Origin: Brachynemurus nebulosus
Lineage: Eukaryota; Arthropoda; Insecta; Neuroptera; Myrmeleontidae
NCBI GenBank assembly: GCA_035578155.1
Contig: JAPWDM010000016.1
Span: 6,792,005 to 6,856,004, forward strand
Length of the DNA stretch: 64,000 nucleotides
Direction: 5' to 3'
Shown: piece by piece, positions 23,207 to 63,776 of the stretch
Layout: each line of letters begins with the position of its first letter
How positions within the stretch are numbered: position 1 is the stretch's first letter
Translations under genes and position numbers: made by a program
The notes under the pieces: model-generated
Seen by the model: the letters and a program-made list of their open reading frames with translations, nothing else
Databases searched by the model: none
What the model was told of the DNA's origin: nothing

Positions 23207-23252
23207 GACTTCGTCTTTCGAAATGACAAACGTACGTAAGCGTTGATTCCTT

Positions 23253-24400: not shown

Positions 24401-24460
24401 TAGAACTGAATGCTAATAAAATTTGATTCGAGCTATTTATAGATTCATGAAAAATTGTGA

Positions 24461-24640: not shown

Positions 24641-24742
24641 TTCAGTTCATCAATTCGTTTCGAAAAAGCTATAAAATGGCTGTGTACACGTTAACACTGC
24701 ACATTTGCTAGTAAACTGTAATAGCATAAGCACGCACACACT

Positions 24743-25731
24743 ATGGATAAAGAACGGAGCTAAAACCAAAAATCGTCAATGCCACAAAATCTATACGCGC
24801 CAAATACCGTGCGCTCAAAGATAGTCAGTTTAAACGAGAGAAAAATTTACAAGAATCATTTAAGCCAATAACGGAGCCACTTAAGGAACTAGCTGCTGAA
24901 ATAAGAAACGAACCAATAAAAAGTTTCTTGCTTAAAGATGAAAAACCTAAAATTAAAAAAGCACGTCTTTCAACTGATTCTGATATCGATATAAAATCAC
25001 GTTTTCTTAGTAACGATGATGATGATACTGAGATATTCAGGTCAACGCTTATGGAACAAAGTAGTCAACCTACAAGAGGTCAACCTACAGCAACACCTTA
25101 TGTGATGGAACAAAGTAGTCGACCTACAGCAAAACCCTATGTTGGTGCACTAGCTGAAAAATATCTCACGTTAGCAACCACACGTAGAGCTAAAAGAACC
25201 CTTGATCGTACCTATGGACCGCGTATTGATGAGCGAACAAATAAATGGATGATTGGTAATTCTGAATTGGATATAATTGATGATAATTTTATTATTAACA
25301 ACATCGTTTACCCCGGCACTGAAGGTCTCTTTGAGTTAATGTTTAAAAAATATCCAAATCATCATGTATACACAGAGTCGGATTTAGATACTTATAAGAC
25401 CATTTTAAAAAGTACTAATGCGCATAAAAGAAGTTATAATATTAATGCACCAGTTAATTCAAATCAAAGTTATAAGTATAGAATAATTATAAAAAAACTT
25501 TTTCCATCGTCACCAAGGTACACGTCAACACCCAAACGACAACCAACCGGTTCCGGTTTAATGCATTATCATGCTAATCAAACGATTGATTATCGTTATT
25601 GGAATGATATAGACGAACTTATCGATAGGCTAATATTATTGGTTGCATCACAGCAAGCTGGACATACCAATCATCAAAATGAGATACAAGCCATTTTAGA
25701 GGAATTGCGTGAGGCTGATGTAATAGAATAA
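24743..25731 (+). pseudogene. Conserved Polinton protein of unknown function, frameshift near start
   Basis: An ATG at 24743 (MDKER) starts a frame that stops six codons later. The adjacent frame is open from about 24757 and runs to 25731, so one small indel separates start and body. The body has a lysine-rich helical N-terminus (ATKSIRAKYRALK, ITEPLKELAAEIRNE), a low-complexity linker with a repeated MEQSSxPT motif, a central EGLFELMFKKYPN box and a conserved C-terminus (DELIDRLILLVASQQAGHTN, ILEELREADVIE). This C-terminus is characteristic of an insect Polinton family whose function is unknown. It begins the plus-strand unit with the fiber-like and integrase genes. Confidence 0.7.
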
Positions 25732-25769
25732 ATACAGGTGATAAACCTGATTAGATAGTCATTTCAAAC

Positions 25770-26186
25770 ATGAGCGTTGACAAATTCGGTCGATTCAGCA
25801 GTGGCGGAAAGGCCGCTTCCATTAATTTAACAACGAATGGTGATTACGATATGAAAGGTAAACGTCTGACAAACGTTCGGACACCTAAACATAAAGCTGA
25901 TGCTGTTAACTTGGCTTTTCTTAATGAAGCGCTTGCTAAAATTTCGGACGGTATGACAACACTTGAAAATTCACATAAACAATTTGAATCAATTGTGACC
26001 GCAAAACTTAGTCATTTGGAGAACATGGATAATGAGTTGAAAATGGTAATGGAAACTATTGCAAATGCGGTATTTAAAGAGGAATTTCACGTTAAATTTA
26101 AGCAATTAGAAAATAAAATACAATTTATTTCGAACCTATATAAGCAACTCACTGTAAATACCATGCCAACAGTTCAAGATGAGTAA
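25770..26186 (+). CDS. Fiber-like coiled-coil protein of Polinton
   Basis: 138 residues. The N-terminal part has GRFSSGG and NGDYDMKGKRLTNVRTPKHK followed by ADAVNLAFLN, a pattern shared with trimeric phage and virus tail-fiber anchors. The rest is a heptad-like coiled coil (about residues 50-125). The end overlaps the integrase start by 8 bp (ATGAGTAA). A structural attachment or spike role is inferred from the fold pattern only. The frame is intact. Confidence 0.6.
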   Translation: MSVDKFGRFSSGGKAASINLTTNGDYDMKGKRLTNVRTPKHKADAVNLAFLNEALAKISDGMTTLENSHKQFESIVTAKLSHLENMDNELKMVMETIANAVFKEEFHVKFKQLENKIQFISNLYKQLTVNTMPTVQDE

Positions 26187-27105
26187 AGTTAAAGAACAAG
26201 TTGTAAGCGAATTACACAAACCGGCTCGTAAAAATTTCAAAAGGCGTCGTGTTATAACTAAGGGTATCGATGATTTATGGCAGGCTGATCTTGTTGAAAT
26301 GGGTGCTTATGCGAAAGAAAATCATGGATATAGGTACCTTTTAACAGCTATTGACACATTTTCGAAGTATGCTTGGACTATACCGGTAAAAGATAAATCT
26401 GGAGCGCTTGTTACTGCTGCCATGGAATCAATATTCAAACAGAGCAAGCGCACACCGACGCACCTTCAAACAAACGACGGCCGAGAATTTTTTAATAGTA
26501 ACTTTAAGGCGTTAATGGAAAAACATAATATTAATCATTACTCTACGTATAGTACGTTAAAAGCTTCAATCGTTGCACGTTTTAATTGTACCATTAAGAA
26601 TAAACTTTGGCGTGCTTTTTCTCTAAACGGTAATTATAAATGGTTGCAATTAATTAACGATTTAGTTGATGAATATAATAGAATAAAGCATCGTACAATC
26701 AAAATGGCTCCACGAGATGTCACTGCTGATAATGAAGCATATTTATTATCTAATGTATACAGTAATATAAAAATTGCTGGTGCAGCCAAGTATAAAGTTA
26801 ACGACTTTGTTCGAATTAGTAAATTTAAGTCAATCTTTGAAAAAGGCTATTCACCGAATTGGTCTACGGAAATTTTTAAAATCTTCAAAGTTCAACATAC
26901 AAATCCAGTCACATATCTACTTGAAGATATCAATCAACGGCCTATCCGAGGCAGCTTTTACGAGTATGAACTACAGAAAGTTAAATATCCTGATGTGTAC
27001 CTCGTGGAACGAATTCTGAAGAGACGTGATGTGAAAGTATTGGTGAAGTGGCTTGGTTTCCCATCCGATAACAACACCTGGATTCAAGAATCTGATATTG
27101 TTTAA
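26179..27105 (+). CDS. Polinton integrase with chromodomain, two catalytic residues replaced
   Basis: A 308-residue open frame with a retroviral-type integrase core (about residues 30-190) and a C-terminal chromodomain (YLVERILKRR ... VKWLGFPSDNNTWI, about 275-308). The first catalytic Asp is present in WQADLVEM. At the second site the family TD(N/D)G is TNDGREFF here, so the Asp is Asn. At the third site the family Glu before RFN is Ala (IVARFNCTIKN). With two of three metal ligands lost, the enzyme should be dead although the frame is open. The integrase normally inserts the element, and the chromodomain would target chromatin. Confidence 0.88.
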   Translation: MSKVKEQVVSELHKPARKNFKRRRVITKGIDDLWQADLVEMGAYAKENHGYRYLLTAIDTFSKYAWTIPVKDKSGALVTAAMESIFKQSKRTPTHLQTNDGREFFNSNFKALMEKHNINHYSTYSTLKASIVARFNCTIKNKLWRAFSLNGNYKWLQLINDLVDEYNRIKHRTIKMAPRDVTADNEAYLLSNVYSNIKIAGAAKYKVNDFVRISKFKSIFEKGYSPNWSTEIFKIFKVQHTNPVTYLLEDINQRPIRGSFYEYELQKVKYPDVYLVERILKRRDVKVLVKWLGFPSDNNTWIQESDIV

Positions 27106-27328
27106 ACAATATAATTTTTGATAATCTGTAAGATAAAAAGGTTCTTTTTTTTCAAATAAATAACACATATATGTAAATAATTATTATTCTTTATTTTTAA
27201 AATATAAGTATGAATACAAAATATTTTCACAATAAATGTATATGTAATATTTTTTACAATAAATGTTTTGTATATGAAATATTTTTCACAATAAATGTAT
27301 TTGAAATATTTTTTACAATAAATAAATA

Positions 27329-28084
27329 TTAAAAATTGTATGATTTGTTTATATATTCAATAACACCCGAATGTAACTGTTTCGTGTTTTCAGGTAACTG
27401 ATCCCATACTTGACAAATTCGTTGTGCATATTCGGGTATCATATATGCATACAGATGTTGCACCCAAATATCATATTTCAATAGCTGTTTTGTTAAGTAT
27501 AATAACATATCGAAATTTCTGACTTTTGTATACAAATAAGGATTAGTCAGAAATATGTCTTCAACGTGTGAAATCCGTGTTGCAAATGTCAATGGTTCAC
27601 CAACGGGCGGTTGAAAGTTTTCCTCCATTTTCACGCCATTCTTGCACATTTCACAGCGAATTTTCAAACCAGGTGGTCCGTCAATATGATCTTGTTGCCA
27701 TGGTCGACTATAATGTTCAAAACATGGTTCACATTCTTGAAACATGGCTCGACAATCGGATGGTAACCAAATCCAGGCGCGTTGTATGACTTTCGCACCA
27801 TAACTTTTCAGCACATTCAAACTGATCCACTTGTAGATTTGAAGAAATGTTTCCAAAGTCGGTTCGTTCAGTAGAGTTGGTTCACGTTCGAAAAATTCAC
27901 CAATTGAAACATCCATTTTATCCCAGTCCATTGATTCCGGTTCAGACAATTTCAAATTTTGCATTTTTACAAGAGCAAAAATTGTTTTTCCGTAGGTATC
28001 AATCCGTTTACGTAGTTTATCCAGTTCACTTGAAAATATTTGTAGCCGTTTCCAGTAAGCCAATGATGACGATGCCATTTCCAC
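27329..28084 (-). CDS. Unrecognised 251-residue protein next to polymerase B
   Basis: I do not recognise this protein. It begins MEMASSSLAYWKRL, or two codons later at MASSSL. It is predominantly helical and rich in Trp, Tyr and acidic residues. A mid-protein Cys cluster (CRAMFQECEPCFEH, then IRCEMCKNG about 30 residues later; residues about 112-148) could bind zinc. The frame is intact and lies 8 bp downstream of the polymerase stop on the same strand, inside the Polinton, with its 3' end facing the integrase gene. It may be a poorly conserved Polinton protein or captured cargo. Confidence 0.6.
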   Translation of the reverse strand: MEMASSSLAYWKRLQIFSSELDKLRKRIDTYGKTIFALVKMQNLKLSEPESMDWDKMDVSIGEFFEREPTLLNEPTLETFLQIYKWISLNVLKSYGAKVIQRAWIWLPSDCRAMFQECEPCFEHYSRPWQQDHIDGPPGLKIRCEMCKNGVKMEENFQPPVGEPLTFATRISHVEDIFLTNPYLYTKVRNFDMLLYLTKQLLKYDIWVQHLYAYMIPEYAQRICQVWDQLPENTKQLHSGVIEYINKSYNF

Positions 28085-28091
28085 TTGCGTA

Positions 28092-31000
28092 CTAATTTAA
28101 CGAGTAATGTCCCCATGCTAAAGTATCCGTTTCCCCCTCCACTATATGTCGTTTCGTATCATACGGGTTGAGCGCCACCTTGTTCTGAGTTACACTATAC
28201 ACGTTATGTTTTTTCGATTGTATCAGGTTTTGTTGTCGGTTTATGATTGTATTGTGTTTTAGACTGTCCACGTAATCGTTAAAAGTTATCGTTTTCTTAA
28301 CCACAGAGTTCTTTATACCTTCCGCTTTCTTCGTGTGATTCTCGCCGTCCACTTGACAACTGTACATTTTTGACCTTAAACCCACAAATTTTGTAAATAT
28401 TCGTCCATTTAGCTCATCCTTCATTAACCCGGGTATTTTCTTATTGACTCTTGGCATATTATATTGATTATCTGCGCTGTAATCTGTCGTATCAAAGTAT
28501 TGAATATCTCGTTTCATTATTTCGTAAATATCTGGGCATTTTATCTCGTAAATCAATGAATCGGTATCCGTGTAGAGTAATTTGCTGTTGTTTCCGAACG
28601 TTGGCTGTATGTAGTTGTAATGAAAATCGTAGACACATGTTTTCGAAATATCCAGAATTGCTTGCCCGACGTATATTGGTTTGTTCATAAAAACTTCCGT
28701 TTTCCGTAGTTCGACCGCGATAAGATTCTCGTCAAATATGGTGCGGCTGTGGAAATTCGGTTTCGCTATCATAACTTCCGCACCATATCGTCCATACCAC
28801 TTCGTTAACAATTTCACAATCGAGTGTTTCCGTACATTTTCCATCGTTTTCCCGAAGACTGCGTTGTTGAGTAGCTTGTAGAGATTTTTCTCGAATTCGT
28901 TTCCCGCCATTTATCTTAGAGTTGTATTCAAGTCGATGTAGGATTTAAGCCATGGTGATTGATTAAACTGTAGCACTCTATGTATTTTCTTTAACTTCAT
29001 CCCGTGTTGTAGACATTGTTTCAGGTTCCGATAGTGTATCACGTATTTCTGTTTGTTGTATAACGTTGCTAGTAACATTTCCTGTTTAGTACCGGGTGCA
29101 CACATTCTCTCTGGACATAATGGTAAATCGTTGTGTTTATCGTCTAGTTCTCTCGGGTATTCCAAATCCACTTCCAGTAAATATCCTATTGGTGAATCAT
29201 CGGGTATTTGTTGAATATCTATGTCAGTATTTTCCATCCATTTGAAATTTCCCGTTGGTAAGTATTGTGACATTGCCCATCCATATAAGTTGTTCACGTC
29301 ATAGTACATCAGGTATTTTGATTCCTCGTCCGGGTCGTAGGTGTTCATATATTTATTGTTTGCTGTCGCGTATCGGTTACTACACTGGCTCAATCCACCT
29401 CGAATGCCACGTTCAATGAATAATAATTGATCCACATCAGATATCAGTATAACTCCACTTTTGTATATTTTAAGGCTGCATCCCACGTAAGTCCCGGCGT
29501 CGTGTAGTAATGAGCTGGATACAATCCGTGTGTGCGCATGCATGTATCCCGAAAATTCTCAAAAACATCCGCGAGTAGTAGTATGTCCGTTTTCATATAT
29601 AAATTCGAATATTCTCCAAGCGTCTGTATGTTGAACGTGTTCCAAACTTTTTGTGCATGTGTATAGTCATCCATGGTAATATCGTTGTCGTTGAGCCGAT
29701 TGTAGAATTTTTCCCGTGATGGTAAACATGTTTCCTCTAATTTATCCCAGCCTGATATATAATCGTACGGAAAGACACCTTTGCGCGTAAGTAATTTGTA
29801 ATCTCTGTTCGGAAATTGCGATTTTACTATGTCGAACTCGTTGAGGTATGAAGATAATTTATCCAAACTTGATGCCATAAATCGGAAAGAGTCGATGAAT
29901 CTAAATGTAATTTCGCTGCCCGTAACATGTTTAGTGAATGCAATGTATCGTTCCTAGTTGATTGGTAGTAAGTCGACACGTCCCTCGAATGCTGTTGCTA
30001 TATCCTTTATTACGAAATGTGCATCATAACCACTCAAGTTGTGGAATACAACAGGAATCATATGAAAATCCTTATAATTCAAGTTGCATCCCTTGTGCGC
30101 AGGTCCATTGTATTCGCCGGTGAAGTGGTTATGATCACGAACCACAATATCCTCAGGTTTGAATGGTTTCTCACAGATGTGGCACCCGGTACTTCGTTGT
30201 TTAAGTTGCTGTTGTTCCTCTGGTGTTAACTCGTTCATTGGTATTATGTTGTCATATTTATGGGTTCCAAGATATTTTCACGTAACGTTACCAGTTCTTC
30301 CGCGAACCATTTTTCGCAATTTGGTCCGCGGTATGATCGATAGTAGCTTAATGGGTTGTTGTAGGAGCAGTGAAAGTAGTAACCGATACTGTATGCCCGA
30401 TATTGTTGGTACGTTGTCGTGTTTTTCTGATTTTCGTTATCCGTCACAGGTTGTAGGAATGATTCGATGTCCGCGTAAATTATAAATGGAACACGTTTTT
30501 TGTTGCTATAATTCTTGAACGATATGTATTTGCTTTTCCCTTCTGGCATTATCACCCGGTTGTTCATGTTCACGCAGTCCTCCGTATGTTTGATCAGTTT
30601 ATCCTCCGTATGAAAGTAATTTAAGCATCGATCACAGATGAATTTTTTCCCATTACGATTTGCTAGTTGTCTTGATACAAGTCGCGATAAGTCCTTAATC
30701 CAACAAAAGTGGTAGCGTAAATCTTGATCGTTGTCCTGTTCTTTGTCTTCATCCTCGTAATACTCGTTCTGGATCATTAAAAGGTTTATGTGGTTTTGTT
30801 TCTTCTCTCTCGTTAGTGCAGCAGGTACGGTTTCAAAATGTCCATTTTGTTTTTTTAGCATAAACACGTTGACTGATATCGTTGGGTTCTGTTTCTCGAA
30901 TTTGCTCAGTTGTTGGATCGTCATTGAAAATTGTATCCCGTCTAAATTTAGCACCGTTGAGTAGTGTGGGTACGCTGATGTTCTTTTAGCACAATTTCGA

Positions 31001-31584
31001 TCTGCTGGATAAAGTGCAGATACCATTGCCCACGCGAAACAGGCGTCATCGTCGAAGTTTTGGATGTTGATACATGCTTGTTTTCGTTTTATTTCCTGAG
31101 GCAATTCGATGTAGCTTGATCCACGAAAAGGTGTGTATTTGTTCACGTTCACAGCTAGGTTGATTATGCTTGATAAAGTCCATCCGCTCCCCGACTCGGT
31201 AAACTCGCTCAATTTTCTCAAAATTGGTTCCCGTACATGTTCCATGTGGCACTGTTTTAGGTTTTTTCCACGATCTATTAAGATATTCGGTGTATTGAAA
31301 TGTTTCATGTCGTATTTATCCTCGTCACCATCAGTTTTCACAAATAACCCGCAAAACGTTGTGTTAAATTTTATCGTTAAGTATTTTTTTAATATATTTT
31401 GTATTCGCCGAGTGAACATCGGTGTAACGTCGTCTAAAAAGTCCTTTGGCTCTATGTGTGTTATGTTGGTAACCACTCCCGTTCGTATTCGACTTGCAAA
31501 TGCGGATTCCACGTCAGCCCATTGAATTCCATCAGATCTTTTACGTTGATTTCGATTCATGCCGGCACCTGAAACAATCAACAT
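28092..31584 (-). pseudogene. Protein-primed DNA polymerase B of Polinton, four disabling lesions
   Basis: Pieces in order show a zinc-finger pair (FICDRCLNYFHTEDKLIKH), exonuclease motif YADIES, an HNH/endonuclease VII-type insert (CHICEKPF, HNHFTGEYNGPAHKGCN), polymerase motif A ([12 protein letters not shown]), motif B (LYKLLNNAVFGKTMEN), motif C (YTDTDS) and the usual C-terminal AWGHY. All catalytic motifs survive. The frame is broken by a frameshift near 30245, a TAG at 29954-29956, a frameshift near 29450 and a TAA at 28911-28913 followed directly by an in-frame ATG. The family enzyme replicates the element from protein-primed ends; this copy cannot make a full-length one. Confidence 0.93.
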
Positions 31585-38840: not shown

Positions 38841-40486
38841 ATGGTTCATTATACTTGTTGTATTGTTAATTGCAAGAATAACTGGCGAAATAGTAACTGC
38901 AAATTTTATTATTTTCCAAAATCTCGACATAAATTGGATCAAAGAAATAAATGGATAACGGCAGTGAGAAGAAAAAAGTGAGTGTACATAACCATACATT
39001 TGTCATATGTCATATTTTTCATTACGATTACATAATTTTTTAGCATTGACGGATCATCGTGGATTCCGAATGCAAATGATACTATTTGCAATGAACATTT
39101 TGTGAGTTATTGCAAATCTAACGACCCAACAAGTCCAAGTTATGTTCCAACTGTCTTTCCGGAAATATACAAGAAACGTAAAATAGATATAGTTTCAGTA
39201 CACAAAAGGTAACATTTCACATCTTTTTATCCATATTCATATAAAATATAAACAACGACAATTAATTTTATAGATACGATCGTTTCATGAAGCGCAGTAA
39301 GATGAGTAAAAAAGCATTAGAAAAATATGAAACCGTGAATGAAGAGCAGATTGAAAATATTACTGATATTACTAAAAAAAATGAAAATATAAGTAAAGAA
39401 TTAGCTTATGAAGCGATTTCATATGATAAAGCATGCAGTGTGTACATTCCCTGTAATTCAACGACCACGACAATTAACAACACATTTGTTTGTAATCGCT
39501 ATATTTATAGCTCTAAATGTGATGCAGAAATTCAGACTGTAATAACTGAAAGTAAGAACCCAATTATTGTTAGCAAAAGAGAGTGTAATGATAAGAAATG
39601 TGGTACACCTAGCAAAACTTTTGCCAATAAATCCGTTGATACCAGCTATTTTAAGAGTATCAACAGTGAACAATTTATTTTCCGTTATTCATCTATAAAA
39701 AGTAATGAGCAACTTGTGGACTTGGCTGGTGTGACATTTAATAATTTTAAAATTTTATTGACAAGAATGGAAGAGTCAAGTAAATGGAAAGTCAATAAAG
39801 AAAATAGACTATTCATTTTCTTAGTAAAATTAAAAACTGGTCTAACTTATTCAGCATTAAGTGTCATTTTCTCTTTACATCGCACTACTATTTCGAAAAT
39901 ATTTTTATCTACTTTACTACACCTTACCAGTGTAACAGCTGATTTTGTGCGTTGGCCTGATAAACTAACAGTTTGTAATACAATGCCAGATTGTTTTAAA
40001 CCTGATTTTGTTAACACTAGAGTTATTATAGACTGTACTGAGTTCCGTATTGACGTTCCAACAAGTGTAGACAATAGAGTATGGTGCTATTCAAATTATA
40101 AAAGAGGATTCACTGCAAAAGTTTTAATTGGTATAACACCGAGTGGCTATATAAGTTTTAAGTCTAAAGTATGTGGAGGTAGAAAAACTGATTCCCAGAT
40201 CACAGTTGAATCAGGAATTCTTGATTTATTAGAAAATGGAGATCTTGTTTTAGCAGATAAAGGATTTCCTAAGATAAAAGAAAGGATTGATGAAACAGGT
40301 AAACGAATACTTCTTGTAATACCACCTTTCTTGGAAAAAAATAAAGAATTCACCAAAGAAGAAACGGAATTAACTTACAACATAGCAAGAGTGCGTATTC
40401 ATGTTGAGCGTATAATGCAGCGACTGAGGATACATAACATTTTAAATAAAATATCAGAACATTTATTTAGTCTAATATTTATTTAG
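38841..40486 (+). CDS. THAP-domain DDE transposase, three exons, in-frame stop near the end
   Basis: Predicted as 38841-38977, 39044-39208 and 39274-40486. Introns of 66 and 65 bp have GTGAGT...TTTTTTAG and GTAACA...TTTTATAG borders and keep phase. Exons 1-2 give a THAP zinc finger (CCIVNC, W in NKWITAV, C..H in CNEHF, then the Pro-containing YVPTVFP). Exon 3 has an HTH region and a DDE_Tnp_4 core with IIDCTEF, LADKGFP and RIHVERIMQR carrying the D, D and E. A TAG at 40484-40486 ends the frame. The same frame continues for 28 more sense codons (DDIVHMCCVLVNLQSPII) to a TAA at 40571-40573, which looks like the original C-terminus. A 16-bp duplication (TTTATTTAGT core) lies at the stop. Confidence 0.85.
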
Positions 40487-40633: not shown

Positions 40634-42590
40634 GTTGCTGAAAACTCAAACTCATTTTATTCCACTCTTTATACATATTTTTTTTTTAAATTATTTTTCG
40701 TAAATCCGTAAATGATATTTAATGAATGTCATAAATTAATAACAGAACGGTTTATAAATGCAAGACCGTGTTCGATTCATGGTATAGAAAATTCTCGCGC
40801 ATGTGCACTATTAAAAAATTCAAATTATTTGACGTCTATTACCATATCTGGAAACTGGAATTTTTTATACCAAAAATCGAACACGAGGCAGGCGAAAGGT
40901 ATAAATTACTAAAATAAAATTAAACTTTTTAAGTAAATTTATTGTATTTTATTTGCAATATTTAAGCCTGTAAATGAACGTTTGCCATACGGTACTTTAT
41001 CTTTAATATTGCACATAACATGTTGAAGTACCACCCCAGAAGCTTTGACTACCGGCAAGTAATGTCTAAAATAAAAGTTTTCGCAGAACGGAATTACTTC
41101 TTTTAACCATTCCTCATCTCTGAAGACAGTAATTAAACAACTATTATTGTTAAATGGAGTATAAATTAATAAATCACACTCACTAACTCCGCAAATATAC
41201 ATTTGTACTTGACACTGATAATAATACATATGGCTTTTCTTCAATTGCAACTTGTTTTCGTGAAATATTAAATAGTTTACGTTGACTTTCTTATTTTTAA
41301 AATCAACGATAACTTTTTCCTTACAGCTGATAGGACATTTTATTTCTAATATTTTTGTTATGCAACCATCGTCTATTACAACTCCATCCGGACTCGTACA
41401 CAACCATGAATGATCTTTCGAAACGATGACACCAACTTTTTTAACATCTACTTCATATTTATTTTTATAATACTCTATGGCGTTTGATTCGTGATTTTTA
41501 CCATATCTTGTTGCAATAACATCAACTTTTTTTGGATTTAATATATCACTAACTAATGATTCTACACTTTTTTTTGTGCGGGATTTTATTGAATAGATAT
41601 TTTTACTTGAAGAAAACCTTAGTCTCCTTTCTTGAAACCATCTTGAGCATCCAGACTGCTTAATAGTATCGCAACATAAGTCAATTATTTCACGTTCAGA
41701 CATAACAATATAATCTTGATAAAAATTTATTATTTCTTCATCAATAATATAAATACCTCGATACGTATCATAATCTTTGGCAAAGTTGAAAAAATTTTCT
41801 AAACAAACAGCACAATCTTCCTTTTCAGTTGTTACTGGTATATTTTCCTCTGCAATGTTAATAAACAACGCCATTGCAGAATCAACATTATTTTTCGATT
41901 CTTGGACAAGAATCCTTTTAAGCGCTGACGGATTTTCTAGTTCCTCTAGTTTCGGCGGGATTGACTTTACATTATTTTTCTTTAGTGGAGGGTACATTTC
42001 AAAGAAATATCGTCCTTTCGAATATTTCTCTTTAGTTAATTGTTTCATACTTAATTTGCTCCATTCTTGACCAGTATCGGTTTTTGTTAGGCTTTCTTTA
42101 TTATTTATATATTCGATAACTGCGGCAATATGTTTACATTTATTACTTTTATTGTACACACAAGTACATGAAACGTTGCTGATCACTCGATGATCATCAA
42201 TCTATGAACAAAAAGTGGAATTAAAAAAGTCACAATACATATACGACATTATTTCAATTTATAATAAGTTACATTTAATATTACTACATATGGAGGCGAA
42301 TTAACCGAAGTTTGCCTTATAACAGAAGCCTTAATTAAATTACTTCGGCCATTTGATCGATGTTCTTCAGCATTTATAACGTGCCCGGCCTCTATCAATT
42401 TCTTCCCCTTAGAAATCGTTGCGGGTTGAAATATTATACTATGCATAACTTTTTGAAATCCTGTTTTTATAATAATATTCATTTTTTGCTAAAAAATTAC
42501 ACAGGTAATTATTTTTGAGTAATTAAATTTGTGTAAATATAATATTACCTTGTGCAGAGTGGAATAAAATAAGTTTGAGTTTTCAGCAAC
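40634..42590. repeat. 35-bp inverted repeats bracketing the YqaJ gene
   Basis: GTTGCTGAAAACTCAAACTC... at 40634-40668 and its inverse at 42556-42590 differ at one base of 35. They enclose the YqaJ gene but not the transposase gene. Internal inverted repeats of this quality inside a transposon could be recombination, transposition or regulatory sites. Confidence 0.85.
40939..42482 (-). CDS. SWIM zinc finger / YqaJ-type nuclease of the transposon
   Basis: Predicted exons are 42482-42273 and 42201-40939, with a 71-bp intron (GTAACT...TTCATAG). The N-terminus has KGKKLIEAGHVINAEEH and then a SWIM finger (CTCVYNKSNKCKH). The C-terminal half is a lambda-exonuclease/YqaJ-fold nuclease with WFQERRLRFSSS, RYGKNHESNAIEYY, the SPDG Asp, the LEIKCP Glu-x-Lys and YYYQCQVQMYICG, so all catalytic positions are present. 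ISL2EU elements typically carry such a nuclease, presumably to process ends. An additional 5' exon upstream of 42482 is possible because the first Met is close to an acceptor-like TTTTTTAG. The frame is intact. Confidence 0.85.
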
Positions 42591-49910: not shown

Positions 49911-50689
49911 TTTAATTTTATTATTCTTTTGAGTTAGGGTACATGCAACCGTGATATGATTAAGATATTTTTTTTTGCTTCCAATATATAAAAGATGGCT
50001 AAATTGTAAGATACATCAATCTGACACTATTTGCTAAACAGGTAGGCCAGTTACATGTTATTGTCCTATACCCATTTTTCTTACTACAGCTTACTACGGG
50101 CAAGCCATCTCCGTAGTTACAAGAGTAAACAAACCTTTAATTACTATAGTAAATACCACAATTGCGCAAAATTCTGTAATTTTCATATATATTTTACCAC
50201 TGACGTTCAACTAGGTAAAAGGTATAATTTAAAAATGATAGGAGATTTTGTATTTAAAGTAAGTAAATATTCACCAATCCACTTTCCTCAAGATGAAGTA
50301 AGTTATTTTCGATTTCCGAAAGCACACGTTTGTAAATATTTTTCTTTTATACGTACGTATATCATATAAACCTATTTAATTTGCAATTTTTTAATAACTA
50401 GATTCTACGCCATTGAGTTATATATGCATTTAAAAATTGGGACCAAAAAACTAGCGAAATTGGCTAACCTGTATAGTATAATATACTAATCAATCAAATG
50501 ATCTTGGCTAAATTGCAATAGACCTTAGATGTTGGCATTTAAACTATTCCATTTAAAAACGAACGTTAATGGGTGAAAACTATTGTATTTAAAAAGCTAA
50601 GCTTGGGAAACATTATTTTGAAAGATCAAATAGCGGATGATATAAAAACTAAGTAATAATATTATAAGTTAGTTAGGTTAAGGTTATAA
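49911..50689. other. AT-rich spacer, no gene seen
   Basis: No recognisable protein or repeat structure up to the start of the minisatellite. Confidence 0.5.
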
Positions 50690-52035
50690 GTTTTTTTTTT
50701 CAAATTTTAGGTAGATATAAAAACTCGGTGGTGAGGTTAGTTAAGGTTAGGTTAGTTTAGTTAGTTTTGACAATATACTTAGACTTTGATATAAAAACTA
50801 ATTAGGTTAAAGTTATAGGTGGTGAGGCTAGTTAAGATAAGGTTAGTTTAGTTAGTTTTAGCAATATACTTCGACTTTGATATAAAAACTAATTAGATTA
50901 AGATTATAGGCGGTGAGGTTAATTAAGGTTAGGTTAGTTTAGACAATATACTTCGACTTTGATCTAAAAAGTAATTAGGTAAAAATTATAGGTGGTAAGG
51001 CTAGTTAAGGTTAGGATAGTTTAGCTAGTTTAGATAATATACTTCGACTTTGATACAAAAACTAATTAGGATAAGGTTATAGGTGGTGAGGTTAGTTAGG
51101 GTTAGGTTAGTTTAGTTAGTTTTGACAATATACTTCGATTTTTGATATAAAAACTAGGTACTGAGGTTAGTTAAGGTTACCCTTTGCCCGAAGGTTAGGT
51201 TAGTTTTGACAATATACTTCGACTTTGACATAAAAACTAGGTGGTGAGGTTAGTTAAGGTTAGGATAGTTTAGTTAGTTTTGACAATATACTTCGACTTT
51301 CTTATAAAAACTAATTAGGTAAAGGTTATAGGTGGTGAGGTTAATTAAGGTTAGGTTAGTTTAGTTAGCTTTGACAATATACTTCGACTTTAATATAAAA
51401 ACTAATTAGGTTAAGGTTATAGGTGGTGAGGTTAGTGTAGTTAGTTTTGACAATGTACTTCAACTTTGGTATAAAAACTAATTAGGTTAACGTTGTAGGT
51501 GGTGAGGTTAATTAAGGTGGGGTTAGTTTAGTTAGTTTTGACAATATACTTCGACTTTGATATAAAAACTAATTAGGTTAAGCTTATAGGTGGTGAGGTT
51601 AGTTTAGTTAGTTTAGACAATATACTTCGACTGTGGTATAAAAACTAATTAGGTTAAGGTTATAGATGGTGAGGTTAATTAAGGTTAGGCTAGTTAAAAC
51701 AATATACTTCGACTTTGATATAAAAACTAATTAGGTAAAGGTTATAGGTGGTTAGATTAGTTAAGGTTAGGTTAGTGTAGTTAGTTTTGACAATATACTT
51801 CGACTTTGGTATAAAAACTAATTAGGTAAAGGTTATAGGTGGTGAGGTTAATTAAGATTAGGTTAGTTTAGTTAGTTTTGACAATATACTTCGACTTTGG
51901 TATAAAAACTAATTAGGTAAAAGTTATAGGTGGTGAGGTTAATTAAAGTTAGGTTAGTTTAGTTAGTTTTGACAATATACTTCGACTTTGATATCAAAAC
52001 TAATTAGGATAAGGTTATAGGTGGTGAGGTTAGTT
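50690..52035. repeat. Minisatellite of ~73-93-bp units rich in GGTTAG
   Basis: The box GACAATATACTTCGACTTTG recurs about 15 times between 50770 and 51970, at spacings of 73-93 bp. Each unit also has ATAAAAACTAATTAGGT, TTATAGGTGGTGAGGTTA and AAGGTTAGGTTAGTTTAG. Length variation comes from loss of one or two GTTAGTTTA-type subrepeats. The GGTTAG runs resemble but do not match the TTAGG insect telomere repeat. Confidence 0.93.
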
Positions 52036-52117
52036 TTTATCTTTAAATACTTCACGAATTAGAAACAAGAGGAAAGCAATAAATTTCAGGATTATTAGAT
52101 TTATAAAACGGTTAGTT

Positions 52118-52427: not shown

Positions 52428-53091
52428 TGTGGGATTGCAGAAATGAAACAGAAGAATTATTTAAATATATTTCATTTATTTTTCTATAATTACAATTTTT
52501 ATAGTGTAATTGTTAATTATTTATTAATTAGAATTGTTAAAATTAACATTTATTGTAATGACAGACTGTTAGACGGACTGTACAAAAGACTGACTAATCA
52601 GACGTACTGTATTTTTTGATACATTTGGGCTGTATGTGCCGTATATGCCAATTGACGGATATACACATTTTTAAGACGAACTAAATATTATTGTTTTGTA
52701 TTCATTTTTTAAGACGACGACGTCTATTTATTTAATTAAAAGACGTGCATTTATCTTCTTAAGACGTATGGAAGATTCTTGCTTATTTTTATGACGAATA
52801 TCTGAAACAAACAATATTTTAAGACGGCATCATACGACGTGTTTATATTTAATTTACTTACCTTTTTATTTGTGTTTTGTGTAATTAAAGTGTTAATTAA
52901 TAATAATTACTGTTATAGTGTAAAGTGTTGTGTTTTATTTAAACCGATATTTGCTATTCTGGTAAATAAATAAACGCTCACAACAAATATTAACCGTAAA
53001 GTGGGATAAAATAATGCCCACTGATATTATTATTTAAAGTGGGGATTTAATTAATAATAATTAATTTAAAAAAAAAATTTTAATCTCCACA
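52428..53091 (+). repeat. 5' LTR
   Basis: A 664-bp repeat. It matches the 3' LTR closely over the first 200 bp and from about 52670 to 52890. It has a diverged patch at 52620-52670 and about 130-150 extra bases before its end (52890-53050). Confidence 0.9.
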
Positions 53092-53098
53092 TACACAT

Positions 53099-53230
53099 CA
53101 GAAGTGGGATAGTGGGCCAATAAAGTGGGATGTTGAACTGGAAAACTGGGATAGTGATAAACTGGGATACTGAACTGATAAAATGGGATACAGTACTGCT
53201 AAAGTGAAACTGACCGTATAAATAAAGTGG
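53099..53230 (+). repeat. Degenerate leader repeats after the 5' LTR
   Basis: Five or six imperfect copies of a unit of about 20 bp with the core ACTGGGATA(C/G)TGAACTG or AAGTGGGATA. They lie in the untranslated leader, where packaging or priming signals would be expected. Confidence 0.7.
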
Positions 53231-53656
53231 AGAAAGATGAAGTGATGAAAGTTTCACACACGTTAGAAATTTGTGAATTAAAGGACAAAGGACTAGTGAA
53301 AAGAACGTAAAACATTTATTATTTAAATTTGTATTGCCTCGAAATCCGTTACATAAAATAAAACGTGCTTGGAAAAGGAGAGAGTACATTGTATATAGCA
53401 ATATACAGCAAGTGGATATATAAGTGAAAGAGACAGAGTGATCTAATGGTGATGTATGTAAATGTAAAGTTCCGCGCAACAGATTACTACGCATCGGATT
53501 TGTATCTATCGTAATACTGTACATACGTACGCGCCAAATCAGCGCCAAATTAACAGTTCTGATTATTCGCGCTAAAATTCAAACGTCTAAATATTTACAT
53601 TTATTAAATTATTCGTGCATTTATTTTAAAATACAACTTCATATACTATTTTCAAA

Positions 53657-56600
53657 ATGGACCGTATACAAAGTGACTCGAATTTAAGAAATTCTGAATT
53701 TATAAATTTTAATAAACGAACACAAAGTTTTAACATATTAAATTTTCCATTTATCTCAAATTCTACGCGTAATCCAAATGATAAGATTAATCTAAATAAC
53801 GAATCTTTCGAACCGTTTAATAAATCGACGAATCATCAAAATTATTTAAAACAAAATAGTGTACCCGGTACTGTACCTTTAACGCATGTTTTAAGTTTAG
53901 ATCAACGCGAACGCGAATTGTTACGTCGCGAATGGAATCTAATTGAAAGGGAATGCGAATTTTTAAATGAAACACGAAGAAGTTTAGAGTCTCGAATACA
54001 CGATTCGCAGCCAATACATGCAATACCTCAACATATTGCAGATGACTTTTTACCTATTTTTGAACCTGGTAAACCGACGAGTTTGACACCGAAATTATGG
54101 CTTAAAAAAATGGAAGAAATATCTACACTCTACAATTGGGATGAAAATACTTTGCTCCTTCGCAGCATTTCCAAAATTAAAGGACCTGCTAAATTCTGGT
54201 ATGATGGAACTCGAAATATTTCAACCTGGAATCAATTTACCACTAAATTAATCGCCGCATTTCCATCTTTTACTGATGAATCTGATGTTCACATGCAATT
54301 AATGAAACGATTTAAGCATACTAACGAGTGTTATGAAAACTACATTTATGAAATGCAAGCTATCGTAAGAAACGCAAATTTAACTAACGAATCAGTAATT
54401 AAATACATTATTGCGGGAATAAGAGATCCTGAAATCATAAAATCATTATCTTTGTCTCATGTTACCGATATTCAAGATTTGTTGATGCAGTTGAAACGTT
54501 ATGAAAATACGCAAGTTCAAGTTAAACAACGTCAACCATTTATTTCTAATGATGTTCGAAAAGAGAAATACCGACAACCAGTTAAGAGCAACTTTCCGAA
54601 ATTCAATTCTAAACGTTGCTATGATTGTGGATCAGTAGGACATTTATCGTCTCAATGCCCATTCAAACGTTCTGGTCGTAAATGTTTCGTTTGCAATAAA
54701 CATGGTCATATTGCGCCAGATTGTCCGGAAAAGAAGACAGCTCAACAAAAGCAACCTGGGCAAACAACCTTGATGGCTTCTACGAATACTACAGGGAATA
54801 TGTACAAAAATGCAACAATCCAAGGCATAACTTTCAACGCTTACCTGCATACTGGATCCGATTTGAATTTACTGTCGTGTGAATCATTCTTTAAAATTCC
54901 GTGTGCACAGTTTCGAAACAACGAAAATTTAAAATTAATCGGTATTGGTGGTCCAACAACAACTTTAGGTACAGTTACCACTAATGTTACCATAGAAGAT
55001 AAGGATTATGAAATCAAATTCCACGTATTGCCAAAGTCGAATCTCAATTTTGATATTATATTAGGAAAAGAATTTTTGTCTAAAATTAACCTTACCATTG
55101 TTGATGGAAATATTGAAATAGTTAACTCCGAAGATGCAAACAATATAATGAAAATCGAACTATCCGAAGATGAATTAGTTATAGGAAGCGACTGTTCAAG
55201 TAATGTTAAGAACGAAATCCGAAATTTAGTACAAGATTATGAACCGATTGCAACCAAGAAAACTGACGTTACTACTAAAATAATTTTAAAAGACGATAAA
55301 CCGGTATTTCACCGTCCAAGACGATTAGCATTTAGTGAAGTTAAAATAGCGAAAGTGTTACCAGTTATTTGCGAAGATGATCTCGAAGAAAATGTTAAAC
55401 TCGACGAAATATGTAAGAGCGGAAAAGACAATTGCATAGTAGATCCGAATAGTAACAATGAAGATGGTACCCAAGAAGAAGATGATTTCTACAAACCACC
55501 GAATAGTAACAATGAAGATAGTACCCAAGAAGAAGATGATTTCTACAAACCACTTACCGAACATCAATCTGATCGACTCAGCGATGAAATAACAAAATTA
55601 TGTGAAAATGAATTATGTCATGCAGCGACCAAAAAGAAACAACCAAGTTTAGGAAAAGTGATATTTAAATGTTTTGGTTTCGAATTCATGTTGTTAGGAT
55701 TGGTATTGTTAGTGTTTGAAATTGGAATGAGGATGTTACAATCCTTGGCGTTGGGAAAATTGATCACGTACTTGTACGCAGCCGGCGTTGTCGCATGTTC
55801 ATTTTTCTACGTTATCTCAGTGCATCCATACATGATGAGAATTTTACATATTTTCAACTATGGTTCAAGAACTGAACTTCATACGGACGCGTCTATGGGG
55901 GGATATTCCGGAATACTCATGCAGGAAGCCGATGATGGGAAACTACATCCAGTTCATTACATGAGTCGAAAAACTATGCCAGCCGAACGTTTATATCACA
56001 GTTACCAGTTAGAAGTATTAGCGATTGTCGAAAGTTTAAAGAAATTCAGAAATTACTTACTGGGTATTCAATTCAAAATCGTAACCGACTGCAAAGCTTT
56101 CGAACAGACCATGGCAAAGCGAGATTTAATAACACGTGTAGCACGATGGGTACTACTAATGCAAGATTTTAATTTTACGGTTGAACACTGTCCAGAATTA
56201 AGAATGAGACACGTTGATGCTTTGAGTAGATATCCTATTGTTATGATGAATCACATCGAAGACACATTAACTAGACGCATACAAGCCGCTCAACAACAAG
56301 ATACTGCGATTAAAGCAATAATGAAAATATTGGAAACCAATCGTTACGAAGATTATATTTTGGAAAATGAAGTGTTATACAAGGAAATAGAAGGCGACAA
56401 ATTACTTGTCATACCTAAAAGTTTACAAACAGAAATAATTCGAGCAGCTCATGATAAAGGTCATTTCGAAATTAGAAAGACTCAAGATTTAATTTCCAAG
56501 GATTTTTACATACCAAAACTTGTCAAAAAGATTGAAGAAGTTATTACAAGTTGTATACCTTGTATCCTTGCAAATAGGAAAGCTGGTAAACAGGAAGGTT

Positions 56601-57529
56601 TCCTAAATCCTATACCTAAATTTTCTACCCCGTTAGATACCTATCATTTAGATCATATTGGACCTTTACAATCTACCCGTAAAAGTTATAAACACCTTTT
56701 CATTATTGTTGATTCTTTTTCTAAATTTACCTGGATCTATCCTACCAAAATCGTTAATGCTCAAGAAGTTCTGGATAAACTTAAAAAACAACAAGCCGTA
56801 TTTGGAGTACCTAGACGTTATATCACAGACCGCGGTGGCGCTTTCCGTTCTGAAGAATTCCAACAGCATTGCCAAGAAGAAAATGTAGAACATATCCAAA
56901 TTACCACAGGCATACCACGTGGAAATGGTCAAGTTGAGAAGATGAATGACGTAATAATTTCCAGTTTGGCTAGACTATCAATCGCAAATCCTCAAGAATG
57001 GTACAAATACGTTCCGAAATTACAACGAACAATAAATTCTACTTTTAACCGTAGTATAAATAATGCACCTTTCAAAGTCATGTTTGGTACCGATATAAAA
57101 TTTAACGCTGATGAAAATATCATAAAAATTCTGGAAGAAGAAACAAGAAATCGTTTTGAAGAGGATCGTAAGGAAATAAGAGAAAATTCCAAAAAAGCTA
57201 TTCTCAAGATTCAAGAAGAAAACCGAAGATACTTCTATAAAAAGAGACGTAAAGCAAACAAATATGAAGAAGGCGATATAGTAGCTACGAAACGAACACA
57301 ATTTGGTTCTGGTTTAAAGCTGTATCCGAAATTCTTAGGTCCGTACCGAATTATCAAAGTGAAACCTCATGACAGATATGATTTACTCAAGATTGGTACT
57401 GGTGAAGGCCCGAATACGACTTCTGCTAGTGCCGATAACCTGAAAAGATGGGAACCACTCGATGACAGCTATAGTTCATCCGAGTCGGATGAAAGTACAG
57501 AATGGCCGAGTGTGGGATTGCAGAAATGA
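53657..57529 (+). CDS. Gag-protease-[ABCC-like segment]-RNase H-integrase polyprotein
   Basis: A 1290-residue uninterrupted frame. Gag has two CCHC knuckles (CYDCGSVGHLSSQC, CFVCNKHGHIAPDC; residues about 320-357). The retropepsin has LHTGSDLNLL where families have DTG, so the catalytic Asp is His398. The pre-RT linker reaches KPVFHRPRRLAFSEV (about 550-565), and then all RT motifs, including YxDD, are missing. Residues about 600-732 instead hold acidic repeats and a membrane segment resembling the N-terminus of insect ABCC/MRP4-type (lethal(2)03659-like) transporters: DDFYKPLTEHQSDRLSDEI, KCFGFEFMLLGLVLLVFEIG, YLYAAGVVACS and HPYMM. RNase H (TDAS at about 743, VTDCKAF, DALSR) and integrase (HDKGHF/CIPC finger, DHIGP, TDRGGAF, GQVEKMN with Glu) follow intact. 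Confidence 0.9.
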   Translation: MDRIQSDSNLRNSEFINFNKRTQSFNILNFPFISNSTRNPNDKINLNNESFEPFNKSTNHQNYLKQNSVPGTVPLTHVLSLDQRERELLRREWNLIERECEFLNETRRSLESRIHDSQPIHAIPQHIADDFLPIFEPGKPTSLTPKLWLKKMEEISTLYNWDENTLLLRSISKIKGPAKFWYDGTRNISTWNQFTTKLIAAFPSFTDESDVHMQLMKRFKHTNECYENYIYEMQAIVRNANLTNESVIKYIIAGIRDPEIIKSLSLSHVTDIQDLLMQLKRYENTQVQVKQRQPFISNDVRKEKYRQPVKSNFPKFNSKRCYDCGSVGHLSSQCPFKRSGRKCFVCNKHGHIAPDCPEKKTAQQKQPGQTTLMASTNTTGNMYKNATIQGITFNAYLHTGSDLNLLSCESFFKIPCAQFRNNENLKLIGIGGPTTTLGTVTTNVTIEDKDYEIKFHVLPKSNLNFDIILGKEFLSKINLTIVDGNIEIVNSEDANNIMKIELSEDELVIGSDCSSNVKNEIRNLVQDYEPIATKKTDVTTKIILKDDKPVFHRPRRLAFSEVKIAKVLPVICEDDLEENVKLDEICKSGKDNCIVDPNSNNEDGTQEEDDFYKPPNSNNEDSTQEEDDFYKPLTEHQSDRLSDEITKLCENELCHAATKKKQPSLGKVIFKCFGFEFMLLGLVLLVFEIGMRMLQSLALGKLITYLYAAGVVACSFFYVISVHPYMMRILHIFNYGSRTELHTDASMGGYSGILMQEADDGKLHPVHYMSRKTMPAERLYHSYQLEVLAIVESLKKFRNYLLGIQFKIVTDCKAFEQTMAKRDLITRVARWVLLMQDFNFTVEHCPELRMRHVDALSRYPIVMMNHIEDTLTRRIQAAQQQDTAIKAIMKILETNRYEDYILENEVLYKEIEGDKLLVIPKSLQTEIIRAAHDKGHFEIRKTQDLISKDFYIPKLVKKIEEVITSCIPCILANRKAGKQEGFLNPIPKFSTPLDTYHLDHIGPLQSTRKSYKHLFIIVDSFSKFTWIYPTKIVNAQEVLDKLKKQQAVFGVPRRYITDRGGAFRSEEFQQHCQEENVEHIQITTGIPRGNGQVEKMNDVIISSLARLSIANPQEWYKYVPKLQRTINSTFNRSINNAPFKVMFGTDIKFNADENIIKILEEETRNRFEEDRKEIRENSKKAILKIQEENRRYFYKKRRKANKYEEGDIVATKRTQFGSGLKLYPKFLGPYRIIKVKPHDRYDLLKIGTGEGPNTTSASADNLKRWEPLDDSYSSSESDESTEWPSVGLQK
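55340..55855 (+). other. Captured ABC transporter-like segment replacing RT
   Basis: From about 55340 the frame leaves Pol similarity. A 54-bp tandem duplication (55445-55498, 55499-55552) doubles an acidic block ending DDFYKP. From 55536 to about 55850 the residues follow the start of insect ABCC4-like proteins: an acidic DDxYxPL.EH.SD..D box, PSLGKVIFKCFG, two hydrophobic helices, and HPYMM. About a dozen residues usual between LITY and AYLYAAG are absent. No intron-like interruption is seen, which suggests capture from spliced RNA. Pol similarity resumes at RTELHTDAS (about 55868). The transporter identity rests on my recognition of the pattern. Confidence 0.78.
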
Positions 57530-58039
57530 AACAGAAGAATTATTTAAATATATTTCATTTATTTTTCTATAATTACAATTTTTATAGTGTAATTGTTAAT
57601 TATTTATTAATTAGAATTGTTAAAATCAACATTTATTGTAATGACAGACTGTCAGACGGACTGTACAAAAAACTGACTAATCAGACGTACTGTATTTTTT
57701 TATACATTTGATGGTTGTAGCAACATTCAGAAGAAAGACGAAAAGTTGTGAAGACGTCATTTTTAAGACGAACTAAATATTATTGTTTTGTATTCATTTT
57801 TTAAGACGACGACGTGTATTTATTTAATTAAAGGACGTGCATTTATCTTCTTAAGACGTATCGAAGATTCTTGCTTATTTTTATGACGAATATCTGAAAC
57901 AAACAATATTTTACGACGACATCATGCGACGTGTTTATATTTAATTTACTTACCTTTTTAATTGTGTTTTGTGTAATTAAAGTATTAATTAATAATAATA
58001 ATAATTAATTAAAAAATAAATAAAAAAAAAATTAATCCC

Positions 58040-58043
<4 letters not shown>
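57511..58043 (+). repeat. 3' LTR
   Basis: A 533-bp repeat starting TGTGGGATTGCAG inside the last codons of the polyprotein frame and ending CCCCACA. It is followed at once by a TA array. Confidence 0.9.
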
Positions 58044-60095: not shown

Positions 60096-60305
60096 GCTAT
60101 GCCGTCTAGATGGTGTTGCTGGTCTGAACCACTGCGAACCCTGTACCCTGATTCAAAATTCCATGAAAAGATGGCGTTGCTAGTCTGAGCCACTGTGAAC
60201 TCTGTACCTTGATTCAAAATTCCATAAAAAGATGGCGTTGCTAGTCTGTACCACCGGGAACTCAGTACCTAGATTCGAAATTCCGTCAAAAGATGGCGTT
60301 GCTTT
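60096..60305. repeat. 61-bp subterminal tandem repeat (left arm)
   Basis: Three to four units with the cores AGATGGCGTTGCTAGTCTG and TTGATTCAAAATTCCAT at 61-bp spacing. The same array is mirrored in the right arm at about 63490-63690. The outer boundary lies about 80 bp from the element tip. Confidence 0.9.
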
Positions 60306-62717: not shown

Positions 62718-63776
62718 GTTTTTTAACGGTGTAGAAACCCGTACTTTTAACAGAGTACTGTATATATGTAAAATATTATATTACTATATATATTTTAAAA
62801 AATTCGTTTTTATTTAATTGTTGATGATCAAATATTTTTACATTAAATGAGTAAATTCTTATGTATTTTATAACACGATATCGCGTGATTAGAGATATAG
62901 TAAAGTAATCATGGGTATTTATAAGGTATATATTTAAAAAAAAATACACACTTAGATATTTATAACGTAAGTATGTAACAATTTTTAGCTGATTAATATA
63001 TATTCTGATATTAAATAACATGAAAGAATGTGCACACAGATTTAAAAAATGTACAGAGTGATACATTTTTGTAAAATTTACGAGTATATATGGTGTGCCA
63101 TAATTGTAAATGGAATTTTTATATATACATCAAGTTTAAGTTATAATATTAAAAATTAGTTTGATTTCTTTTTAGGGGATCGGTGTAAATCACAAGATCA
63201 GTTTTTTTCTTTAAATTTTTTTTATTAAGTATAGTTTTTTAAAAAAATAGGTACACAGTGATCACTTTTAACTAGTAAAATTTATAATTATATTAAAAAT
63301 TTGTGCATCTGCAAGAAAGTGCTCTGTGAGGAATCAAAGATCAAATCATATACAAATATTATTGTAATAACAATTAAACATTTTTATTGTAAAATATTTC
63401 TTTTTAAATAAATTTTAAAAAAAATGTGTTTTTATTTAAAGAAAAACCTGTATAAACCTGTTTTCAGATAAAAATATTATAAAATTATGAAAGAAACGCC
63501 ATCTTTTGACGCAATTTTGAATCTAGGTACAGAGTTCCCGGTGGTTCAGACTAGCAACGCCATCTTTTAATGGAATTTTGAATCAAGTTACAGAGTTCAC
63601 AGTGGCTCAAACTAGCAACGCCATCTTTTCATGGAATTTTGAATCAGGGTACAGGGTTCGCAGTGGTTCAGACTAGCAACGCCATCTAAACGGCATAGCT
63701 TAGCTATCTCCTTCCGGGTTTGTTCAAAAATCGGGAGGTGGGGAGGTGGTCCCAGAATGCCCCAAAAGTGTCTACT

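What the first reader, a model, noticed from the sequence alone, without database searches (positions are those of the whole stretch)
55340..55855. LTR retrotransposon whose reverse transcriptase is replaced by an ABCC/MRP4-like transporter segment
The 1290-codon frame is open from Gag to integrase, yet the RT region between the PRRLAFSEV linker and the RNase H start (RTELHTDAS) is gone. In its place is a stretch matching, by motif order, the N-terminus and first membrane helices of insect ABCC4-like transporters. A random fusion would soon acquire stops, but this one keeps frame on both sides, which suggests either a very recent recombinant or selection for the fusion. It would be a retroelement polyprotein with membrane-spanning helices in the middle and no polymerase, mobilised in trans. 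I know of no described family like it.
Basis: partly seen in the sequence, partly recalled or inferred. Interest (0 to 1): 0.93.

Follow-up and report, generated by a model that had tools for sequence, protein, structure and literature searches.

The report
Retrotransposon with a stolen transporter piece
An insect jumping element has lost its copying enzyme and carries in its place a spliced piece of the host's own ABC-transporter message; four copies of this chimera lie scattered in the genome, so it seems to have been copied by enzymes borrowed from other elements, a rare animal parallel to the maize element Bs1.

Summary
Observation confirmed, limits corrected. A Ty3/gypsy-type element (LTRs 52428-53091, 57511-58043) has one open frame (53657-57529, 1290 aa) with Gag, protease, RNase H and integrase but no reverse transcriptase. 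In RT's place, 55528-55853 matches ABCC4 (PDB E 6e-10; Chrysoperla carnea ABCC4, 61%). The donor gene lies in the same genome; its 2.2-kb intron is removed exactly, so mRNA was captured. Most of 55340-55527 is not ABCC4; a 54-nt tandem duplication spans the left joint.

Not a lone accident: four fusion copies (C45, C4, C1, C58) fit one capture; in two (window, C4) the frame is open as far as read. Their right-hand joints are of three kinds, two at microhomologies, as template switching predicts. A genome search found no RT-bearing copy of this family above 75% identity; sister elements about 66% alike carry RT, and three sister copies lost RT and RNase H in frame.

Gag-PR and integrase show purifying selection between copies; the ABCC part does not clearly. 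Best reading: a non-autonomous LTR element that transduced host mRNA and was mobilised in trans (inferred). Closest precedent: maize Bs1.

The parts
52428..53091 (+). 5' LTR (TGTGGG...TCTCCACA), preceded by a (TA)n run
57511..58043 (+). 3' LTR (TGTGGG...CCCCACA), with an internal deletion relative to the 5' LTR, followed by a (TA)n run; 12 of 442 aligned sites differ (K2P 0.028)
53657..57529 (+). single open frame, 1290 aa: Gag - CCHC x2 - protease - foreign segment - RNase H - integrase
54845..54862 (+). protease active-site motif, altered in this copy and of the usual form in the C4 and C1 copies
55340..55473 (+). stretch of unknown origin between the protease linker and the ABCC part; shared by the C4, C1 and (diverged) C105 loci
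55445..55552 (+). 54-nt tandem duplication across the left joint (present in the C4 copy, absent in the C1 copy; C58 is truncated here)
55528..55853 (+). captured ABCC4 mRNA piece: exon join at 55731/55732; 39 nt of the gene missing at 55767-55773, between CGTACTT repeats
55649..55822 (+). two hydrophobic stretches (residues 665-700 and 702-722), corresponding to the first membrane helices of ABCC4
55840..55855 (+). right joint inside AATTTTACATATT; the word stands in the native linker of relative L043, and the gene and the C4/C58 copies each match it at 12 of 13 bases
55871..56319 (+). RNase H with its acidic motifs (TELHTDAS, QLEVLAIV, IVTDC, HVDALSR) present
   Evidence: that these are the catalytic motifs is recalled
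56320..57526 (+). integrase (H2C2 finger; HLDHIG, ITDRGG, GQVEKM present)
   Evidence: catalytic role recalled

Best explanation
A Ty3/gypsy-type LTR element transduced a piece of spliced host ABCC4 mRNA during reverse transcription. Shown: the piece matches a gene still present in this genome, that gene's intron is removed exactly, two of three kinds of right-hand joint lie in microhomologies, and four scattered copies fit one capture. Inferred: ABCC4 mRNA was co-packaged in a virus-like particle; the reverse transcriptase jumped from an element RNA to the ABCC4 mRNA and back, losing the RT region. The chimera keeps LTRs, Gag, protease and integrase in one frame and is copied with RT supplied in trans by relatives. 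Later jumps between chimeric and RNase-H-bearing RNAs gave the other right-hand joints; the window copy regained RNase H that way. The ABCC stretch mainly acts as an in-frame filler that keeps integrase translated.
For: ABCC4 identity. Donor gene: captured parts of two exons at L012 6715-6918 and 9096-9255; the 2177-bp GT...AG intron between them is absent from the element; the gene matches Chrysoperla ABCC4 over residues 27-1397 of 1411 in four long blocks. Four fusion copies among 8 matches of the segment, on C45, C4, C1 and C58. Of the 427 and 357 bases flanking the window element, the other three loci show one 36-nt match (89%), inverted and about 2.8 kb from the C58 element. Derived sites: 6 shared by all four copies against the gene, 7 by window+C4+C58 only, 4 in conflict with that grouping. 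C4/C58 joint at AATGAAAATA, found once in the host piece and once in RH-IN; 2.5e-5 of 200000 random joints share 10 or more bases (three 10-mer positions are shared overall). Window joint word stands in the native linker of L043. Gag-PR dN/dS 0.35 (window-C4, p 2e-4) and 0.33 (window-C1, p 5e-8). RT is plentiful in the genome: 13370 first-look RVT_1 candidates, of which 150 were scored and listed above cut-off.
Against: No RT-bearing copy of the same family was found: of 23 RH-IN matches, 6 rows belong to the four fusion copies and 17 are 64-74% alike, so the helper is extinct, divergent, or missing from the assembly or the search. Only the window copy has both LTRs; C4 has part of a 5' LTR and runs into Ns, C1 and C58 are truncated. 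The window's protease motif is altered, so this copy may be dead. P(no stop) since insertion under neutrality is 0.13, so its open frame alone proves little. Integrase may have entered the window and C1 lineages by recombination, so its dN/dS need not have accrued in RT-less elements. The C1 joint has a 7-8 nt filler and no clear microhomology. The left joint was not tested statistically.
Confidence: 0.85

Rival explanations
1. Assembly or library chimera, or a chance resemblance.
For: The window's own right joint (ABCC to RNase H) was seen in one copy only.
Against: ABCC E-values of 6e-10 to 3e-32; left joint and ABCC piece in copies on other contigs at 93% and 81% identity; two joint kinds lie in microhomologies.
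Confidence: 0.02
2. The fusion protein was domesticated or is selected for its membrane helices (for instance to bring Gag-Pol or particles to membranes).
For: Two copies keep the frame open through the ABCC part; the large losses in C4 are multiples of three (465 net and 234 nt); both hydrophobic stretches remain, and the 39-nt loss only shortens their loop.
Against: dN/dS of the ABCC part between copies is 0.37-0.57 and not significantly below 1 (p 0.055-0.48); C58 has a stop in it; four copies with different losses rather than one conserved gene.
Confidence: 0.08
3. A processed ABCC4 retrocopy was inserted into the element as DNA (LINE-type or repair) and the RT was deleted later.
For: Retrocopies are common (recalled); the piece is intronless.
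Against: No poly(A) run or target duplication is visible at the joints; the piece is internal to the mRNA at both ends and meets the element at shared words on the right.
Confidence: 0.04
4. The four copies are dead fragments spread by segmental duplication or repair, not by trans-mobilisation.
For: Three of four copies are incomplete.
Against: Flanks differ; the window copy has both LTRs between (TA)n runs; Gag-PR is constrained between copies.
Confidence: 0.05

Closest known systems
Bs1 of maize (LTR retroelement with transduced host gene pieces)
   Same: LTR element carrying pieces of three host genes, one a membrane transporter (proton ATPase). Seen as passages in the review PMC13317346. 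That Bs1 lacks RT and that its pieces are spliced is recalled.
   Different: Plant element with several captures; here one gene in an animal, inside the pol frame, with RNase H and integrase kept in frame downstream.
LTR-mediated retroposition in metazoans (Tan et al. 2016)
   Same: Encapsidated mRNA, template switching at microsimilarities; reported for mosquito, zebrafish and chicken. Seen only through passages of the review PMC5408686; the paper itself is not held.
   Different: There the review speaks of retrocopies carrying LTRs; here the host piece stays inside an open Gag-Pol frame and the chimera is present in four copies.
Oncogene-transducing retroviruses (recalled)
   Same: Host cDNA replaces part of the viral genes and the chimera needs a helper.
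   Different: No evidence here of a gain from the captured piece; a genomic transposon, not an infectious agent.
Non-autonomous LTR elements such as TR-GAG, LARD, BARE-2 (features recalled; TR-GAG and LARD only as search terms in listing 129, BARE-2 in a passage)
   Same: Depend on enzymes made in trans.
   Different: Here Gag, protease and integrase are kept and RT alone (or RT and RNase H) is missing.
Insect retrotransposons with accessory domains (viral helicase fused to LTR polyproteins)
   Same: Foreign domain translated with a retrotransposon polyprotein; passages of PMC6338049.
   Different: Those domains are of viral origin and added; here a host transporter piece replaces RT.

Membership tests
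Autonomous Ty3/gypsy (Metaviridae) | LTRs, Gag, PR-RT-RH-IN order | tested here: not met
   RT absent; the rest in order
Non-autonomous LTR retrotransposon of Ty3/gypsy origin | two LTRs and dispersed copies | tested here: met
   LTRs (both seen in the window copy only); four copies with different flanks
Non-autonomous LTR retrotransposon of Ty3/gypsy origin | lacks an enzyme needed for its own copying | tested here: met
   no RVT_1 in the window copy; no RT match in the loci of the four copies (L035-L040)
Non-autonomous LTR retrotransposon of Ty3/gypsy origin | mobilised in trans by a helper | not testable with these tools
   inferred from copy number and lack of RT; no close RT-bearing copy found
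Bs1-type / LTR-mediated transduction of host mRNA | host exons joined without intron inside an LTR element | tested here: met
Bs1-type / LTR-mediated transduction of host mRNA | microhomology at the joints | tested here: inconclusive
   present at the C4/C58 right joint (10 nt) and the window right joint (12 of 13); not at the C1 right joint, which has a 7-8 nt filler; the left joint is short, its element-side source uncertain and not tested
ABCC4 transporter | two membrane domains and two ATPase domains | tested here: not met
   only residues corresponding to 41-161 of C. carnea ABCC4 are present
Domesticated retroelement gene | purifying selection on the new part | tested here: inconclusive
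   ABCC dN/dS 0.37-0.57 in six element pairs, p 0.055-0.48

The most novel reading that the evidence does not exclude
In these element families the RT-less state itself is selected: elements repeatedly shed RT or RT+RNase H at microhomologies while keeping Gag, protease and integrase in frame, so that RT is shared in trans and the shed forms outlive their RT-bearing parents. In one lineage a host membrane hairpin filled the gap and gives Gag-Pol particles a membrane address.
Probability: 0.07. Interest if true: 0.85.

Novelty: new variant of a known kind. Interest (0 to 1): 0.56.

Why it matters
It is an animal case in which capture of spliced host mRNA by an LTR element can be read base by base: donor gene, removed intron, slippage-like deletion, and three kinds of joint. 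The chimera multiplied although no close RT-bearing relative was found in the assembly, and a sister family shows RT and RNase H lost in frame in three copies. That makes the questions of who supplies RT, and whether RT loss is favoured, testable by sequencing.

Tried and rejected
Considered and rejected: chance or assembly chimera; LINE-type retrocopy insertion; a lone recombinant (see rivals). The internal loss, 33 nt in my notes, is 39 nt by the two CGTACTT positions in the gene. L043, 87 kb off in my notes (measured from the window's end), lies about 93 kb from the element's end.

Led nowhere: a single-sequence AlphaFold model of the fusion (mean pLDDT 43) is uninformative. The source of the pre-ABCC stretch was not found: against 124 other proteins held, the best E was 0.51. 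Of 150 scored RVT_1 places I fetched 20: none matched the element's DNA at E 1e-5, and the best protein similarity to RH-IN was 38-40%, so none of the 20 is a close helper. Genome searches with the LTR, with Gag-PR and with 55340-55486 did not complete, so solo LTRs and Gag-only copies are uncounted. Literature: Elrouby and Bureau 2010 and Tan 2016 are not held. Paper searches were seen as listings (titles and starts of abstracts): 9 of 9; 0; 11 of 11; 10 of 20; 10 of 10; 8 of 32; 9 of 9; 8 of 12; none listed an LTR element with a captured ABC-transporter piece.

Full report
What is there. The window lies in a genome of 960 Mb in 138 contigs; the donor gene's likeness to Chrysoperla points to a lacewing or relative (inference). 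The element runs from 52428 to 58043 between (TA)n runs: LTRs of 664 and 533 bp with TGTGGG...CCACA ends, the 3' one with an internal deletion. Over two clean blocks they differ at 12 of 442 sites, K2P 0.028; a 38/47-nt block between them does not align and was left out, as was the part missing from the 3' LTR. The frame 53657-57529 is open for 1290 codons. Pfam matches, in order, Gag, two zinc knuckles, a protease (19.2 bits against a cut-off of 20.7), RNase H, H2C2 finger and integrase core; no RVT_1.

The foreign part. Residues 625-732 match residues 41-161 of Chrysoperla carnea ABCC4 at 61% identity with one 13-residue gap, and mammalian ABCC4 structures at E 6e-10. In one search the four proteins listed, of 180 candidates, are insect proteins: one ABCC4-like, two MRP lethal(2)03659, and a hypothetical one with ABC domains. 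The hydrophobic stretches at 665-700 and 702-722 are the only ones in the whole frame above the 1.6 Kyte-Doolittle mark.

The donor. A DNA search of the same genome with 55340-55855 gave 8 matches: the window; C4 (93%, nearly full length); C1:62.20M (81%, with gaps); C58 (95%, right half); three matches on two exons of one gene at C1:177.37M; and C105, which has only the pre-ABCC stretch. The gene matches Chrysoperla ABCC4 from residue 27 to 1397 in four long blocks of 68-86% identity; it was not checked for stops. Its two captured exons are separated by a 2177-bp GT...AG intron; the element joins them exactly (55731/55732). The element also lacks 39 nt lying between two CGTACTT words of the second exon, as slippage during reverse transcription would give. 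So the piece came through mRNA.

One capture, several copies. In the ABCC columns, six sites differ from the gene in all four copies and seven in window, C4 and C58 but not C1; four sites conflict with this grouping. Window and C4 share the 54-nt duplication, C1 lacks it, and C58 has lost that part. This fits one capture with C1 branching first. The window's flanks do not recur beside the other copies, save for one 36-nt inverted match about 2.8 kb from the C58 element. The C4 copy, though it lost 465 (net) and 234 nt, has no stop and no frameshift against the window in the stretches compared, all in one frame; its 3' end runs into Ns. C1 has at least two stops and five frameshifting indels, C58 one stop.

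Three right-hand joints. C4 and C58 continue with a few more host bases (TGG) and then meet the element at AATGAAAATA, a word found once in the host piece and once in RH-IN (56320); 2.5e-5 of 200000 random joints share 10 or more bases, and three 10-mer positions are shared overall. This looks like the original joint, with RT and RNase H lost together. The window instead joins to the RNase H start inside AATTTTACATATT. The decayed relative L043, about 93 kb downstream of the element on the same contig, carries this word in its own linker (PILHIF); the gene and the C4/C58 copies each match it at 12 of 13 bases. So the window copy most likely regained RNase H by a second switch. C1 shows a third joint with a 7-8 nt filler. 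The order of these events is an inference; only a few bases mark the C4/C58 joint as host beyond the shared word.

Who copies it. RH-IN of the window was searched in the genome: 23 matches from 21 first-look candidates; six rows are the four fusion copies, the other 17 are 64-74% alike. Among those 17, tblastn with the RT of relative P0006 found RT with a YxDD string in L041, L042 and L045, further RT pieces in L043, L044, L050, L052, L054, L056 and L057, and next to integrase only the first 30-39 RT residues in L046, L047 and L048 (L046 has a separate RT piece at the far end of its locus). The last three are 94-98% identical to L041, L042 and L045 and lack about 1.1 kb between near-identical 10-nt words, in frame. 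L046 has 612 codons from protease to integrase without a stop; L047 and L048 carry frameshifting indels and stops. L048 is nearest to RT-bearing L045 (dS 0.022), so either the same loss happened twice or copies recombined, and selection after the loss cannot be isolated there. Relative P0007 (source 'lgn') also lacks most of RT. Thus loss of RT with the rest kept in frame recurs in this clade; an RT-bearing twin of the ABCC family was not found.

Selection. Between window and C4, Gag-PR has dN/dS 0.35 (p 2e-4) and integrase 0.24 (p 2e-5); window-C1 0.33 (p 5e-8) and 0.27 (p 5e-5). Against this, C4-C58 integrase, after their shared loss of part of the core, gives 1.20 (Sd 3, Nd 14, p 1): no constraint. 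The ABCC part gives 0.46 (p 0.055), 0.51, 0.57, 0.50, 0.37 and 0.55 in the six element pairs, none below p 0.05. The pre-ABCC stretch gives 0.12 (window-C1, p 0.003) and 0.57 twice (not significant). Fisher tests treat sites as independent and pairs share branches, so p values are rough. Gag-PR constraint lies on the side linked to the shared left joint and is the best sign that chimeras stayed active; integrase may have been imported by recombination. The protease active-site motif is altered in the window copy and of the usual form in C4 and C1. Neutral drift since insertion would leave the frame stop-free with probability 0.13, so the open frame of this single copy is weak evidence.

Comparison. 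Reviews describe the same kind of mechanism: maize Bs1 with pieces of three host genes including a membrane ATPase (passages of PMC13317346) and LTR-mediated retroposition in mosquito, zebrafish and chicken through template switching at microsimilarities (passages of PMC5408686; a short passage in PMC8232201). The finding is therefore a new variant of a known kind, with an unusually clear record and an unusual architecture: RT replaced in frame by a host transporter piece. It is not a member of autonomous Ty3/gypsy, since RT was tested and is absent.

Noticed in passing
L046, L047, L048 (G000 C1:134.98M, C138:0.11M, C48:8.01M): Sister-family copies that lost RT and RNase H between near-identical 10-nt words, in frame (L046: 612 codons from protease to integrase without a stop).
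   Followed up: partly
window 21131-31584: Cluster with Maverick/Polinton-type genes: DNA polymerase B, double-jelly-roll capsid in two frames, integrase with chromodomain (the name is an inference).
   Followed up: no
window 39287-40486: Frame with DDE_Tnp_4 and HTH_Tnp_4, a Harbinger-like transposase (the name is recalled).
   Followed up: no
window 40939-42186: Frame with a YqaJ-like viral recombinase domain.
   Followed up: no
window 52628-52665 versus 57711-57757: A 38/47-nt block of the two LTRs is unalignable although the flanking blocks are 97-98% identical; by eye the 3' LTR version resembles the C58 copy, which suggests a patch exchange.
   Followed up: no
L014 (G000 C105:940500-950400): Gag-protease relative (76-84% DNA identity in pieces) that has the pre-ABCC stretch without ABCC or pol and runs on into an acidic tail; a possible Gag-PR-only element and source of the left side.
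   Followed up: partly
window 50576-52077: Tandem array of 76-91-nt units about 350 bp upstream of the element.
   Followed up: no
window 60108-60303 and 63495-63687: The same 61-nt tandem unit occurs in opposite orientations on either side of about 3.2 kb.
   Followed up: no
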